Origin: Bacteroidota bacterium
GTDB taxonomy: Bacteria > Bacteroidota > Ignavibacteria > Ignavibacteriales > Ignavibacteriaceae
DNA length: 64,000 bases
NCBI GenBank assembly: GCA_021777835.1
Contig: JAJYDC010000002.1
Location: 62,001-126,000 of the forward strand
Reading direction: 5' to 3'
Under the pieces are notes generated by a model. It ran no database searches. It had not been told where the DNA came from and saw nothing but the letters and a program-made list of their open reading frames with translations. Made by a program: the position numbers and the translations under genes. Of the stretch, positions 24,132-45,809 are shown one piece after another (positions within the stretch are counted from its first letter, which is position 1; each line of letters opens with the position of its first letter).

Positions 24132-25783
24132 TTTTTTCGAAATTTAAGAAAGTATTAATAGCAGCTTTTATAATTTTTGTTTTTGCCGGATTCTTTGAAG
24201 GTAAAGATGATGTTTATTACCAAATAGCAAAAAATATTGACCTCTTTGGCAAGGTATATAAGGAGGTAACATTTAATTATGTTGATAAGATAAACCCTGA
24301 AGAATTCATGAGAGCCGGAATTAAAGGAATGCTAAGCGCACTAGATCCTTATACTATTTTTATAGATGGAAGTAATAAACAAGATTTCGATCTTATAACT
24401 AATGGAAAATATGGAGGAGTCGGAATTTCAATAGGAATAAGAGGAGACAGAGTTACGGTAGTTGATGTCCTTGAAGGTTATTCAGCTCAAAAACAAGGTG
24501 TTAGAGTAGGTGATGATTTAATAGAAGTAGCAGGGCGAAAGATTACGCCAGAAAACGTGAATGAAATTTCTTCTCTCGTAAAAGGTCAACCGGGAACAAT
24601 TGTTAATGTAAAGGTTCTAAGAGATGAGGAAAAGGATACATTAAGCTTTAATCTTGTTCGCGAAGAAGTAATGGTGAAAAGTGTTGCTTATGCCGGATTC
24701 TACCCAGAAAATAGTAATAATGTTTATTTAAGACTGACAAACTTCAGCAAATCGGCAAGTGATGAAGTTCTTACTGCGCTTAAGGAATTAAGTGCAAAGA
24801 AAGAAATAAAATCAGTTGTGCTTGATTTAAGGGGTAATCCGGGAGGACTGTTGGATGTTGCGGTGGATATTTGTGAAATGTTCTTACCTAAGAATGATTT
24901 AGTAGTTTCTACTAAAGGTAGAGATGAATCTAGCAAGCACAGCTATTATTCTGTACACGAACCATTATTAGCGAATGCAGATTTAGTTGTTTTAATTGAC
25001 GATGGTTCTGCATCGGCATCTGAAATTGTTGCGGGTGCAATCCAAGATCATGATAGAGGCGTCATCCTCGGTACAAAATCTTTTGGAAAAGGTTTAGTTC
25101 AGACTATCACTCCGCTTGATGATAAAACCTCTTTGAAAATTACAACAGCTAGATATTATACTCCTAGCGGAAGGTGTATACAGAAAATTGATTATGCAAG
25201 CCATAATAAAGCAGTCTCAGAAATTGATACAATATTTAAGTCTACATATTACACTGATCATAAACGATTGGTTTATTCTGCAGGCGGAATTACTCCAGAT
25301 TCTACAGTCCCATATGAAATTGCTGGAAATATTACAAGAGATCTTTTGGCAAAAGGTCTTTTCTTTCAGTTTGCAGATCATTATTATTATGCAAATAGGA
25401 AGGCCGATTTTAAATCCTTGAATGACGATCAAATATTTGATGCCTTCAAGAAATATTTGGAGGAACAAAAATATACATATAAGTCTCCAACTGAGAGTCA
25501 GGTAAATCAATTACTTGCTGAAATAAAAACGAAGAATATTGATAAAAGTATATATGAAAATTTAGAGAAAGTAAAGCTTCAATTTGAAAAACTAGGTGAT
25601 AGAGATTTGAGTATTTATAAAAAGGAAATAATTGAAGAACTAAAAATTGAATTGGCTACAAGATATATTGGCAACAACGGAGCAGTGCGAGAAATGCTAT
25701 CTGATGATGTACAATTCCAAACTGCACTGAAAATATTATCAAATAAAAATTTATATGATAAAATTTTAGCGATTAAAAATTAA
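24128..25783 (+). CDS. C-terminal processing peptidase, S41 family (CtpA-like)
   Basis: A 551-residue periplasmic protease with one N-terminal hydrophobic segment (residues 8-25) as signal or anchor. A PDZ domain spans about 95-175 (GGVGISIGIRGDRVTVVDVL). The S41 catalytic core follows, with GSASASEIVAG (catalytic Ser, probably Ser296) and GTKSFGKGLVQT (catalytic Lys321), so the Ser-Lys dyad is intact. A helical C-terminal extension of about 130 residues completes it. It degrades or trims proteins from their C-termini in the cell envelope. The start overlaps tmk by 4 bp. Confidence 0.93.
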   Translation: MIFSKFKKVLIAAFIIFVFAGFFEGKDDVYYQIAKNIDLFGKVYKEVTFNYVDKINPEEFMRAGIKGMLSALDPYTIFIDGSNKQDFDLITNGKYGGVGISIGIRGDRVTVVDVLEGYSAQKQGVRVGDDLIEVAGRKITPENVNEISSLVKGQPGTIVNVKVLRDEEKDTLSFNLVREEVMVKSVAYAGFYPENSNNVYLRLTNFSKSASDEVLTALKELSAKKEIKSVVLDLRGNPGGLLDVAVDICEMFLPKNDLVVSTKGRDESSKHSYYSVHEPLLANADLVVLIDDGSASASEIVAGAIQDHDRGVILGTKSFGKGLVQTITPLDDKTSLKITTARYYTPSGRCIQKIDYASHNKAVSEIDTIFKSTYYTDHKRLVYSAGGITPDSTVPYEIAGNITRDLLAKGLFFQFADHYYYANRKADFKSLNDDQIFDAFKKYLEEQKYTYKSPTESQVNQLLAEIKTKNIDKSIYENLEKVKLQFEKLGDRDLSIYKKEIIEELKIELATRYIGNNGAVREMLSDDVQFQTALKILSNKNLYDKILAIKN

Positions 25784-42603: not shown

Positions 42604-43947
42604 ATGAACTTTCTTGATAAGTTAATAATTCCTCTTTCGCCAAAGCACATTATGCTGCTTCATTATATGCTAATGTTGATATTCTCCTTATTTATTCCCT
42701 TTATAAGCATTTTACTGAGCGGAACTTTTTTCTCGGTTTATTTTAAGAACAGAGGAGTTAAGGAAAATGATTCTAATAAGCTTCGGCTCTCAAAGGATTT
42801 GATGGAAGTTGTTACTATTAATAAAAGTATGGGGATTGTATTAGGTGTATTGACACTGTTAACTTCAATATTGATATATATGCAATTATTAAGTCCAGGA
42901 CAATCACAGGCGATTTCATATCTTATTGCTTCATTTTTACTATTTATTATAGGCCTAGTTTTAATTTACACTTATTTTTACTCACTAAAATTTTCACAGG
43001 TGTTTGAGGCTATTAAGAGTTTCAAATCTGATGACAAGGTAATAGAAAACGAGATTTCGGAACTGCAATCAGGAAGTCGTCACTTAAGTACAACATCCGG
43101 TAAATTTGGGTTCTTCTTTCTGTTTGTATCTGTATGGTTCTTTATTGCAGGTTCTACTCTTCCAATTTACCCAGATTCATTCAGCGCGGGAAGTATTTTA
43201 TCGGTACTCTTTTCATGGCTAGTAGTATCAAGATTTATCCAAATCATCTTTATTTCCGGAGCTTTTACAGGTGCGACATTACTTTTTGCTTTCTTCTATT
43301 GGGACGGTGGCAGAAAGTTTAATTCAGAAGAATATAAAAGTATGGTTAGGAGTTTCAGTATAAGGCTGACGTTTACTTCGATTATAATACTACCTATATT
43401 CTTGCTGATTAATTTAGTAACACTTCCTAGTGATTCGCTGTCAGCGGCTGTATTCTTTTATTCTAGCGCAGCGTTGGTATTAATATTCTTGGCTTATCAT
43501 TATCTGTATGTTATGATAAGGAATCAAAATATTAAGTATAGTTTACACATTTTCGTAACTGTTATTGTAGTAATAGTTGCTATAGTAATAAAGGATCAGT
43601 TAGCTTTAACTAATGCAAATGAAATGCAGACAGTTGTAATGGGTGCAAAATACGAAGAGGTAATGCAGAAATTAACGGGTGCAAATAAGGCTCCTAAGAT
43701 TAGCGGAGAAGATATTTACAAGAATATCTGCTCATCATGTCACAGTTTTGATCATAAAGTAGTAGGACCTCCATATAAGCAGACTCTTCCTAAGTATAAG
43801 GGAAATGTTGATAAACTAGTTGCATTTATATTGCATCCAACTCAAAACAATCCTGGTTATCCTCCGATGCCAAATCCTGGATTGAACCCTGCTCAAGCTA
43901 AGGCAGTAGCAACTTATATACTTAGCGAAGTAAAGAAGTACGAATAA
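42604..43947 (+). CDS. Polytopic membrane protein with C-terminal cytochrome c domain, unrecognised
   Basis: A 447-residue protein with about eight membrane helices (first at 15-45, LLHYMLMLIFSLFIPFISIL; last near 317-335). It ends in a class I cytochrome c domain of some 90 residues, with heme site C376-S-S-C379-H380 and the methionine region YPPMPNPGLNP. Histidines in the membrane part (LLHY, AYHYLY) could bind a b heme, but this is speculation. I do not recognise the membrane domain. Its place at the end of the ACIII/oxidase operon suggests an electron carrier or accessory unit for the oxidase, whose subunit II lacks a heme domain. Confidence 0.8.
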   Translation: MNFLDKLIIPLSPKHIMLLHYMLMLIFSLFIPFISILLSGTFFSVYFKNRGVKENDSNKLRLSKDLMEVVTINKSMGIVLGVLTLLTSILIYMQLLSPGQSQAISYLIASFLLFIIGLVLIYTYFYSLKFSQVFEAIKSFKSDDKVIENEISELQSGSRHLSTTSGKFGFFFLFVSVWFFIAGSTLPIYPDSFSAGSILSVLFSWLVVSRFIQIIFISGAFTGATLLFAFFYWDGGRKFNSEEYKSMVRSFSIRLTFTSIIILPIFLLINLVTLPSDSLSAAVFFYSSAALVLIFLAYHYLYVMIRNQNIKYSLHIFVTVIVVIVAIVIKDQLALTNANEMQTVVMGAKYEEVMQKLTGANKAPKISGEDIYKNICSSCHSFDHKVVGPPYKQTLPKYKGNVDKLVAFILHPTQNNPGYPPMPNPGLNPAQAKAVATYILSEVKKYE

Positions 43948-43961
43948 AAGTATTTTGTATC

Positions 43962-43992
43962 CGGCTCATTTATAGTAAATATTAATGAGCCG
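43962..43992 (+). terminator. Hairpin at the end of the respiratory operon
   Basis: CGGCTCATT (43962-43970) pairs perfectly with AATGAGCCG (43984-43992) across a 13-nt AT-rich loop, 14 bp after the last stop codon. There is no T tract afterwards, so it is either an inefficient terminator or a 3'-end stabilising structure. Confidence 0.5.
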
Positions 43993-44236
43993 AGTGTACT
44001 TCCTATCCTCTAATTACTAACCCTCATATTCTCATTGTTTTTCTAGTAACTCTTTAGATTTCTCAGGTATTCAGCTTGAGGTTATAATGAGGTATATATG
44101 TAATAAGCTAAATAGTTATATATAAGGTAGTTAGGGTTGTCAGGTAAAGTATTATTGATTGTCTTATATGGCTTTAACTATATGGTACCTTTATCTTAGT
44201 GGTGTAGGGGGAAGGTAGGTGCAATAGGCGGAGGAG

Positions 44237-44302
44237 GACGTTTTCAGGACGATTTCACAACGTTTACAAGACGTATTCATGACGTTTTCAGAACGTTGTC
44301 AG
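44237..44302. repeat. Six tandem copies of an 11-bp repeat (consensus GACGTTTTCAG)
   Basis: Units start at 44237, 44248, 44259, 44270, 44281 and 44292 with no gaps. Units 1 and 5 are identical. The others differ at one to three positions, and ACG (positions 2-4) and CA (9-10) are invariant. The period of 11 is not a multiple of three, and it equals about one turn of DNA. It lies between convergent genes, so it is not in a promoter. Function is unknown. Confidence 0.85.
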
Positions 44303-44542
44303 AATTTGTTTTTGAATTGAGTTGGTCTGGATGAATTATCTATGATTATGATAATAGAATAGATAATCGATGAAATGAACTAATACTTGCTAGGATCAAA
44401 TATAATAATTTGAATATTTTTAATCAATATTTTGATAGTGAAGTTCTGTTTATATTAAGGCAATGACAGTGGATTTGATTAAATATTTTATCTTTTTTAG
44501 TCTGCTAAAAGCGATTATTAGATAGGAATTTGATTAAAATGG

Positions 44543-44576
44543 AGATAGAATGCAATTTATGAATTGCATTCTATCT
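44543..44576 (-). terminator. 15-bp perfect inverted repeat, terminator of the minus-strand M24 gene
   Basis: AGATAGAATGCAATT (44543-44557) and AATTGCATTCTATCT (44562-44576) pair perfectly with a 4-nt TATG loop. It is 42 bp downstream of the M24 peptidase stop codon on the minus strand. The T run after it on that strand is short (CCATTTTAAT), so termination efficiency is uncertain. Being symmetric, it could act in both directions. Confidence 0.6.
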
Positions 44577-44618: not shown

Positions 44619-45809
44619 TTAACTTAAAATCGGCAATACGAATTTTTGTATATCATTTCCGGTAGCCATTACTTTCCCATCCGGGGTAATATAGACATCA
44701 ATCTCACTTCTAACTCCAAACTCCGGCAGATAGATACCCGGTTCAATAGAGAATGAAGTTGAAGGTAATAGAAGGCGTTCGTCTTTGGTTTCATAATTAT
44801 CCATATGGGCGCCGCTTCCGTGTAAATCGGTAGTAATTGAGTGACCTGTTCTATGGAAGAAGTATTCTCCATATCCAGCTTTAGAAATAACATTTCTTGC
44901 AGCATCATCAACTTCAAATCCACGGACTTCTTTATGATCAGCAAACCTATATGAAACAAAACTAAGAGCTTCGTCTCTTGCTTTAGCAACGATATTAAAA
45001 ATATTTGAATACTTTTCAGGAACTGTAGTGCCGGCATAACCGACCCATGTTATATCAGCCCAAACTGAGTCGGTATTTTTTGTTTTAGCCCAAAGGTCAA
45101 TCAAGACAAAATCATTCTTATGGATTGGTTTGAAGATTTCAGGTGTAGGAGCATAATGCGGATTAGCGCTGTTTTCATTTACACCAACGATCGGAGGTGA
45201 ATCTGTGTAATAGTTTCGCTTATCAAATTCATTCATTATGAATTGCTGTACATCATATTCAGTTAACTCTAAACCGGACAATAGCTGTGTTTTTATAAAA
45301 TCAAATGCGCTTCTAACAATTTTAGTAATTTCTAATGCAACAGGTTTGTTGTCGTTAAATTGTTCTTGCGACCAAACAGCTGCAAACATTGAAATTAAAT
45401 CGGCGCTGCTTTTTACTTCTACGCCATAGGATTTTATTAACTCAATTGTTCCTGCATCTACTTTAGCGACGTAAGGTATAGCATTAAGCGGAGAATATTC
45501 CATAGCAACTGATTTAACATTTTTTAGAATATTTTTGAGATGATTAGTAAGAGAGGAGTGGTTAGAATACTTTAATTTTTCTCCGGGTAAGTGGTCTAAG
45601 AATCCGGCTTCAATTGCATTTACAATTTTTTTCGGTTCACCGTCTTTTGGAATAAAATAGAAAAATCGTCTAGTAAGATGGCTTTCTTTAGGAAGGTTCA
45701 AAATATTTAGAGCCAAATCATTTGAACCGCGGAAGTCAAAAAAGAGCCATCCATCAAAGCCCATGTTTTTAATTATTCCTTGAATTTTATTTAAGTCAAA
45801 GCTGCTCAT
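44619..45809 (-). CDS. M24-family metallopeptidase (Xaa-Pro dipeptidase/aminopeptidase P-like)
   Basis: A 396-residue pita-bread-fold peptidase. The five metal ligands are all present: Asp238 (LIDLWAK), Asp252 (WADITWVG), His323 (HRTGHSI), Glu356 (SIEPGIYLP) and Glu369 (VRSEIDVYI). The N-terminal 150 residues form the creatinase-like domain. There is no signal peptide, so it acts in the cytoplasm on proline-containing peptides. It lies 32 bp downstream of the histidine kinase gene on the same strand and is probably co-transcribed with it. Confidence 0.9.
   Translation of the reverse strand: MSSFDLNKIQGIIKNMGFDGWLFFDFRGSNDLALNILNLPKESHLTRRFFYFIPKDGEPKKIVNAIEAGFLDHLPGEKLKYSNHSSLTNHLKNILKNVKSVAMEYSPLNAIPYVAKVDAGTIELIKSYGVEVKSSADLISMFAAVWSQEQFNDNKPVALEITKIVRSAFDFIKTQLLSGLELTEYDVQQFIMNEFDKRNYYTDSPPIVGVNENSANPHYAPTPEIFKPIHKNDFVLIDLWAKTKNTDSVWADITWVGYAGTTVPEKYSNIFNIVAKARDEALSFVSYRFADHKEVRGFEVDDAARNVISKAGYGEYFFHRTGHSITTDLHGSGAHMDNYETKDERLLLPSTSFSIEPGIYLPEFGVRSEIDVYITPDGKVMATGNDIQKFVLPILS

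What the first reader, a model, noticed from the sequence alone, without database searches (positions are those of the whole stretch)
44237..44302. Six gapless 11-bp tandem repeats between convergent genes
The units follow GACGTTTTCAG with invariant ACG and CA, 11 bp being close to one helical turn, so a protein could bind one face repeatedly. The location between convergent genes argues against promoter control, and the period argues against coding. Iteron-like binding array, chromosome-structure site or remnant minisatellite are all possible. It is flanked by hairpins in a 670-bp island with a purine-rich stretch.
Basis: seen in the sequence. Interest (0 to 1): 0.6.

Follow-up and report, generated by a model that had tools for sequence, protein, structure and literature searches.

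The report
Dispersed 11-bp arrays paired with DUF6266-like genes
The short repeat is one of sixteen scattered copies of the same DNA array in this genome, and arrays of this kind often sit in front of genes of one uncharacterised protein family in related bacteria, with repeat sequences that differ between gene lineages, which suggests an undescribed protein-and-binding-site system.

Summary
In detail: six gapless 11-bp units at 44237-44302, the strongest period-11 array in the window. It is not isolated. The genome (Ignavibacteria-like) holds 16 intergenic arrays of this unit, RACGTWTTCAN, and 17 of a second, AGTGYATTCAG; reversed-pattern controls give 0. One array of the first family lies just upstream of a 237-aa gene distantly related to Pfam DUF6266. 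Of 65 non-redundant upstream regions of such genes (11 genera), 48 carry an 11-bp array beyond all shuffles (43 of 60 without the five seeds), against 2-7 at other periods tested. In one clade close proteins share the unit; distant ones do not. Gene-less copies of a gene's unit recur elsewhere in several genomes, and in G001 one solo copy is visibly a decayed gene-bearing cassette. Best reading: the window array is a gene-less copy from such a gene-array system, probably a multi-site operator for the DUF6266-like protein. The genomic linkage is shown; binding, fold and function are inferred (both structure models failed). The convergent location is the exception, 1 of 16. No paper in the held library names DUF6266.

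The parts
44237..44302 (+). core array: six 11-bp units, consensus RACGTWTTCAN
   Evidence: same unit at 15 other genome places
44190..44236 (+). G-rich lead-in (46% G); its last units GTAGGTGCAAT and AGGCGGAGGAG are in 11-bp phase with the array, as in the 13 main G000 arrays taken together
44303..44332 (+). T-rich tail after the array (AATTTGTTTTTGAATTGAG...); other G000 tails are alike in composition, and in G007 tails of one family are conserved in sequence
43962..43992 (+). hairpin after the upstream gene, probably its terminator
   Evidence: inverted repeat I9 (92% complementary); terminator role inferred
44543..44576 (-). hairpin with perfect 15-bp arms, probably the terminator of the downstream convergent gene
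   Evidence: inverted repeat I2; terminator role inferred
42604..43947 (+). flanking gene, 447 aa, with a cytochrome c550-like C-terminal domain
   Evidence: NF045773 24.1 bits, below its cut-off
44619..45809 (-). flanking gene, 396 aa, Xaa-Pro-aminopeptidase-like
   Evidence: NF007310 69.3 bits, below its cut-off

Best explanation
The window array is a gene-less (solo) copy from a two-part system. One part is a small gene of a DUF6266-like family with a strongly basic N-terminus. The other is a tandem array of 11-bp units, mostly 60-250 bp upstream of that gene. Units differ between gene lineages, and solo arrays of a gene's unit are scattered between other genes of the same genome. Mechanism proposed: the protein binds the array cooperatively, one subunit per helical turn on one DNA face; at its own promoter this regulates the gene, and solo arrays are further binding places in trans (titration, local regulation or DNA organisation). 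Shown here: the arrays, the gene association, the lineage pattern in one large clade, solo copies, one decayed cassette. Inferred: binding, autoregulation, the role of solos. For the window the partner is G000:C61:8531-9217.
For: 16 arrays of this unit in the genome, control 0. The C61 copy lies just upstream of the DUF6266-like gene, and so do arrays at four relatives: G001:C14, G188:C3, G188:C38, G307:C85. Extension: 48 of 65 non-redundant upstreams of such genes exceed all 60 shuffles at lag 11, 43 of 60 without these five seeds, versus 7, 3, 2, 2, 3, 4 of 65 at lags 8, 9, 10, 12, 13, 14. Control ORFs: 7 of 223 exceed; two are DUF6266-like genes and three are divergent neighbours sharing such an array, leaving 2. 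Proteins at least 55% identical share the unit (mean 9.0 of 11, 21 pairs), under 30% identical 5.1-5.3; permutation 0 of 500. Solo arrays of a gene's unit: G256:C80 for the unit of G256:C15; G397 and G329; 13 places in G007 and 2 in G001. The second G000 unit is abundant in 3 of 13 genus genomes, G000, G007 and G011; in the 52-row tree the clade {G000:C42, G011:C78, G007:C74}, support 100/99, comes from those three, and G007:C74 carries that unit upstream. L153 in G001 is a decayed cassette: 76% over 387 bp to gene-bearing L155, reaching 145 bp into the gene. N-terminal 70 residues have pI 9.5-11.8 in 29 of 29 proteins measured.
Against: No binding or expression data. The only library matches are weak: DUF6266 below cut-off in one of five proteins, a PADLOC candidate PDC-M02B at E 0.007 in one of three, PHROGs of unknown function at E 0.019 and 0.43 in one of three, no PDB sequence; none names a DNA-binding domain. 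Both structure models failed (mean pLDDT 50.0 and 30.5). 17 of 65 genes show no significant array, among them G000:C42. G002 has three arrays and G003 one array-like hit, but no gene was found in either (G002 89% complete). Arrays at orthologous places are no more alike (30, 30, 30 of 33) than others (mean 28.4), and gapped alignment finds 73-77% identity in parts of those intergenic regions outside the array too, so constraint on single places is not shown. The 21 close pairs come from one clade; pairs at 40-55% identity (4) average 5.25. In one search the ACG and AGTG label classes (3 rows each) do not cluster beyond shuffles.
Confidence: 0.55

Rival explanations
1. REPtron-like or MITE-like mobile elements: the array is the recognition part of a small non-autonomous element, and the DUF6266-like protein (or an unknown transposase) multiplies it. 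Solo arrays are deletion derivatives.
For: In G007 five AGGCTTGTT-type copies at different places share about 155 bp with sharp edges by eye, and terminal inverted repeats GTGCCATTTTTGTCAC..., both ends within one mismatch in L345 and L347. L153 is a truncated gene cassette. The window locus is about 580 bp longer than in FK3.bin26. TnpA-REP with its nearby and genome-wide REPs is a precedent (PMC8266576, passages).
Against: No transposase family among the library matches. Column conservation of the 13 main G000 copies fades within about 45 bp upstream and 20 bp downstream of the array. That TIR was not found at the other loci scanned in G000 and G007. Target-site duplications were not tested.
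Confidence: 0.2
2. Neutral fossils: solo arrays are inert leftovers of duplicated gene cassettes whose genes were lost; only gene-linked arrays matter.
For: Decayed cassette L153; absence at the window locus in FK3.bin26; orthologous arrays no more alike than others, and flanks partly as well conserved.
Against: At three orthologous places the last 33 bp of the array match 30/33, while ungapped flanks match 10/55 to 36/66 (the ungapped comparison understates flanks with indels). Of 35 solo arrays checked, none gave a gene remnant by protein profile (best E 0.31; only the gene-bearing C61 locus hit), but the same test also missed L153, so it is insensitive.
Confidence: 0.13
3. Operators of a conventional regulator encoded elsewhere, such as an OmpR/PhoB-type response regulator or a SARP, which also use 11-bp-spaced direct repeats; DUF6266-like genes would be just one regulated target.
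For: 11-bp direct repeats are used by SARPs (PMC10936776, passages) and, recalled, by PhoB/PhoP-type regulators.
Against: Different paralogues of one genome carry different upstream units, e.g. among ten G155 and seven G188 upstreams seen, and close proteins share units; one regulator elsewhere would not explain this. Genes beside the 16 arrays show no common theme by eye.
Confidence: 0.08
4. RNA-level element or intrinsically curved DNA: the array acts as a repeated protein site in a transcript, or through phased T-tracts.
For: The ACGTTTTCA unit has T-tracts in helical phase; some arrays could lie in the 5' leader of the gene.
Against: Other units have no A/T tracts (AGTGCATTCAG, AGGCTTGTTAG), so the period is kept and the tract is not. 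Orientation to neighbouring genes is mixed. In four arrays of G397 and G329 the units face one inverted unit across 11 bp, as in dimeric DNA sites.
Confidence: 0.04

Closest known systems
REPtron (TnpA-REP/RAYT gene with REP/REPIN sequences)
   Same: A gene with cognate repeats beside it and further copies genome-wide; repeat and protein groups co-evolve (PMC8266576, passages).
   Different: REPs are palindromes processed by an HUH/Y1-type enzyme (partly recalled); here the repeats are non-palindromic 11-bp tandem units, no transposase family was found for the protein, and genomes hold up to 40 matches to the gene profile.
ParR/parC of type II plasmid partition (plasmid R1)
   Same: Direct repeats upstream of the operon; R1 ParR needs at least two 11-bp repeats (PMC9426499, passages).
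   Different: Chromosomal and dispersed; no ribbon-helix-helix Pfam match; a canonical DUF6266 query had no match in the plasmid collection.
SARP and PhoB/PhoP-type direct-repeat operators
   Same: Tandem direct repeats at an 11-bp period (SARP: PMC10936776, passages; PhoB/PhoP recalled).
   Different: Arrays of up to 7 core units in G000, not at a fixed place relative to genes; the linked protein has no such Pfam domain.
Pfam DUF6266 (PF19781)
   Same: Similar length and N-terminal motif; several canonical DUF6266 genes also have 10- or 11-bp repeats upstream.
   Different: The ignavibacterial proteins fall below the family cut-off (13.8 vs 23.4 bits in one of five, no hit in four), so they are called DUF6266-like.

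Membership tests
REPtron | gene beside cognate repeats plus genome-wide copies | tested here: met
REPtron | HUH/Y1 transposase-type protein | tested here: not met
   Pfam scan of five proteins gives only a weak DUF6266 match in one; no sequence match in PDB chains; a very remote relation is not excluded because the fold is unknown
REPtron | palindromic hairpin repeat | tested here: not met
   units are direct, non-palindromic 11-mers
MITE | terminal inverted repeats | tested here: inconclusive
   found in one G007 family (both ends within one mismatch in two of five copies); that TIR was absent from the window locus and other G000 loci scanned, other TIRs there were not sought systematically
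MITE | target-site duplication | not tested
   no clean pair of filled and empty sites was aligned
ParMRC partition | short direct repeats (11 bp in R1) upstream of the gene | tested here: met
ParMRC partition | ribbon-helix-helix ParR | tested here: not met
   no such Pfam match in five proteins; fold itself unknown
ParMRC partition | ParM ATPase beside it | not tested
   neighbouring ORFs were only read by eye
DUF6266 (PF19781) | score above Pfam gathering cut-off | tested here: not met
   13.8 bits vs 23.4 for L027; no hit for the other four; 0 matches in G000 at E 1e-5
DUF6266 (PF19781) | upstream 10-11-bp array also in canonical members | tested here: inconclusive
   12 of 13 upstreams examined (L330 begins at the gene): period 11 is the single best lag in 5 (L333, L335, L337, L338, L339), period 10 in L336 and weakly L332, a 10/11 tie in L329, nothing clear in L327, L328, L331, L334; no shuffle test
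Neutral minisatellite | locus-specific unit unrelated to other loci | tested here: not met
   same unit at 16 places, control 0
OmpR/PhoB or SARP operator | cognate winged-helix regulator linked to the array | tested here: not met
   the linked gene has no such Pfam domain; a regulator encoded elsewhere was not tested

The most novel reading that the evidence does not exclude
A bacterial family of sequence-specific DNA-binding proteins that diversifies paralogue by paralogue together with private 11-bp tandem arrays, and seeds solo copies of those arrays through the chromosome: a gene-repeat system with no known transposase, no palindromic repeat and an unseen fold, present in the class of the window and in at least one other group of the phylum.
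Probability: 0.35. Interest if true: 0.85.

Novelty: new variant of a known kind. Interest (0 to 1): 0.72.

Why it matters
It gives a testable partner and a likely role (DNA binding) to a protein family of unknown function, with up to 40 profile matches per genome. Because gene lineages come with their own readable 11-bp unit, many protein-target pairs could be read straight from genomes, which would make the recognition code of a new DNA-binding family directly testable. It would also be a second gene-plus-dispersed-repeat design beside REP/RAYT.

Tried and rejected
Coding repeat: rejected, since the period is not a multiple of three and the 16 arrays lie between the main ORFs. Rfam: nothing at the array at gathering scores. 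Convergent-gene (3'-end) element: rejected, 1 of 16. Curved DNA by phased T-tracts: rejected because other units lack tracts. Phage or plasmid origin: a canonical DUF6266 query gave no match in 50,697 phage or 72,556 plasmid records; in IMG/VR the DUF6266-like profile found no relative and the canonical profile one contig, L340, where it lies beside ORFs that look holin-, lysozyme- and recombinase-like by eye. Structure: single-sequence AlphaFold2 on L340 and L056 failed, so no fold search was run. Integron link: two G012 arrays on near-duplicate contigs lie within 1 kb of an ORF that looks integron-integrase-like by eye; not followed. Gene remnants beside solos: none by protein profile, a test that also missed L153. 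Orthologous arrays being more alike than others: not so. Literature: DUF6266, 0 papers; '11-bp' + 'tandem repeats' + 'intergenic' + 'Ignavibacteri', 0 papers; 11-bp repeat phrases, 22 papers, listing only, none on this family by title; two broader searches (116 papers of which 10 listed, and 1 paper) showed nothing relevant in their listings. REPIN/RAYT search: listing only. PMC8266576, PMC9426499 and PMC10936776: passages only.

Full report
OBSERVATION. The array is as described: six gapless 11-bp units at 44237-44302 with ACG and CA invariant. Its lag-11 identity, 41/55, exceeds all 1000 Markov shuffles of the 671-bp island (mean 24.6, maximum 37) and is the highest at that lag in the window. 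The upstream G-rich stretch is part of the pattern: degenerate units such as GTAGGTGCAAT and AGGCGGAGGAG continue the 11-bp phase, and comparable lead-in units precede the other main G000 arrays.

ONE OF SIXTEEN. Pattern searches of the window's own genome (G000, 3.64 Mb, 95 contigs) find the same unit at 16 places on 13 contigs; the reversed-pattern control finds 0. By my reading of the ORFs, setting aside small ones of 71-80 aa, 8 lie between divergent genes, 7 between co-directional genes and 1, the window's, between convergent genes. In 40 relatives the pattern was met in four, all of the genus: G001, G002, G008 and G012. A sequence-only model gave matches at E up to 1 in all 13 genus genomes, most of them weak outside those five, and led to a second unit, AGTGYATTCAG, with 17 places in G000, control 0. 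A generic pattern (G-NN-TTCA at period 11) over 294 genomes of the class matched 10: G000 70 hits, G007 61, G184 54, G001 11, G307 8, G188 7, and G004, G155, G256 and G301 one or two each; the reversed control hit eight genomes, at most twice, so the last four are near noise. The class is inferred from named relatives of the glycogen phosphorylase gene, which are Ignavibacteria or 'Bacteroidetes' MAGs.

THE PARTNER GENE. Five arrays in four genera proved to lie about 40-210 bp upstream of the start of one gene family, in the same relative orientation: G000:C61, G001:C14, G188:C3, G188:C38, G307:C85 (G000 and G001 are one genus, so three genera strictly). The proteins (227-237 aa) share an N-terminal G-K-x-G-N...R-P motif. 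Pfam gives only a sub-threshold DUF6266 match in one of five. A profile of the five found the family in 20 of 52 genomes, 11 genera, with 2 matches in G000 and up to 40. I took upstream regions of 70 genes: 30 loci given by the tool as best, 40 picked by me from the listing without sight of their upstreams. After dropping one unlocated, one short, one misplaced and two duplicates, 65 remained. At lag 11, 48 exceed all 60 shuffles (43 of 60 without the five seeds); at lags 8, 9, 10, 12, 13 and 14 only 7, 3, 2, 2, 3 and 4 do. Of 223 control ORF upstreams 7 exceed; two are DUF6266-like genes missed by my filter and three are divergent neighbours sharing the same intergenic array, leaving 2. 17 of 65 genes show no significant array, among them G000:C42.

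UNITS AND LINEAGE. Among 19 genes with full proteins and clear arrays, pairs at least 55% identical share 9.0 of 11 unit positions on average (21 pairs, one clade); 4 pairs at 40-55% share 5.25; 39 pairs at 30-40% share 6.2 (4 of them at least 9); 107 pairs under 30% share 5.1-5.3; permutation for pairs over 40%: 0 of 500. On a 52-row tree (two rows are one gene fetched twice) the AGRCTTGTT class clusters (9 changes, shuffled mean 12.6, as low in 3 of 500) and all labels together need 20 changes against 27.8 shuffled, 0 of 200 as low; the ACG and AGTG classes, three rows each, do not cluster by that test. G000:C42, G011:C78 and G007:C74 form a clade (100/99); G007:C74 carries the AGTGYATTCAG-type unit upstream, and these genomes are the three of 13 in which that unit is abundant (45, 32 and 99 hits; G001 7, G004 3, the other eight 0). 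Not every gene match of the genus is in the tree, so 'only these three' is not proved. The two G000 paralogues thus plausibly pair with the two G000 array families.

SOLO COPIES IN TRANS. The unit of G256:C15 occurs in G256 only at that gene and at C80, which has no such gene; seven other genomes gave one two-mismatch hit. The AGRCTTGTT unit, up to two mismatches, was met in 12 of 20 genomes, at genes and elsewhere, e.g. 13 non-gene places in G007 and 2 in G001; of six genomes without the gene five had none and one had one hit; the reversed control hit four genomes once each, and three genomes with the gene (G000, G033, G188) had none. In one genus of another family of the phylum, the unit ATCAAAGACGT of a canonical DUF6266 gene occurs beside an intact gene and at C33 in G329, beside a broken gene copy and at C1:2855957-2856031 in G397, and in none of eight other genomes, one of them a congener.

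ORIGIN AND TURNOVER. Solo copy L153 in G001 aligns with gene-bearing L155 at 76% over 387 bp, including 145 bp of gene start, now broken; its orthologue L162 keeps array and upstream part only. Three array places are shared by G001 and G008. The shared arrays are not more alike than unrelated ones (30/33 each vs mean 28.4), and gapped alignment finds similar identity in parts of the flanks, so constraint on single places is not shown. At the window locus the relative FK3.bin26 (83-91% identity in the neighbouring proteins) has about 90 bp and no array. In G007 one family consists of repeated modules of about 155 bp with terminal inverted repeats, so some copies may be mobile.

MECHANISM. I judge the array to be a multi-site operator for the DUF6266-like protein: one helical turn per unit, a basic N-terminus in 29 of 29 proteins measured (pI 9.5-11.8), position upstream of the gene, and lineage-linked units. 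Binding was not tested and the fold is unknown. The main rival is a REP/RAYT-like or MITE-like mobile design; neutral fossils come next.

COMPARISON. It works like ParR/parC (11-bp repeats in plasmid R1; PMC9426499, passages), SARP operators (PMC10936776, passages) and REPtrons (PMC8266576, passages), but defining features of each (transposase-type enzyme, palindrome, ribbon-helix-helix, linked winged-helix regulator) were not met at the level of Pfam and sequence. No paper in the held library mentions DUF6266.

Noticed in passing
window 24884-25142 (-): Rfam match to Rp_sR47 (Rickettsia sRNA47), 74.2 bits over a gathering score of 60, in an Ignavibacteria-like genome; perhaps a widespread RNA under a narrow name.
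   Followed up: no
G000 at 17 places, e.g. in L216, L220-L225, L255, L256; one on the window's contig just outside it, G000:C67:56721: A second dispersed 11-bp family, AGTGYATTCAG, with similar anatomy.
   Followed up: partly
L344-L348 (G007): Repeated modules of about 155 bp with terminal inverted repeats GTGCCATTTTTGTCAC..., carrying AGGCTTGTT arrays followed by a purine-rich stretch.
   Followed up: partly
L200 (G007:C30:28288-28462): A long AGTGNATTCAG array of about 16 units, the longest I saw.
   Followed up: no
L377, L380, L383, L378 (G397, G329): Arrays of ATCAAAGACGT face one inverted unit across an 11-bp spacer in all four places read, at genes and in solos: a dyad that suggests dimeric binding.
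   Followed up: partly
L164 and L166 (G012): Array within 1 kb of an ORF that looks like an integron integrase by eye, on two near-duplicate contigs.
   Followed up: no
L340 (IMG/VR contig): Canonical DUF6266 gene with two 11-bp units upstream, beside ORFs that look holin-like, lysozyme-like and tyrosine-recombinase-like by eye.
   Followed up: no
G155 and G256: 40 and 22 matches to the DUF6266-like profile (some fragments), an extreme expansion; the upstreams seen carry different units.
   Followed up: partly
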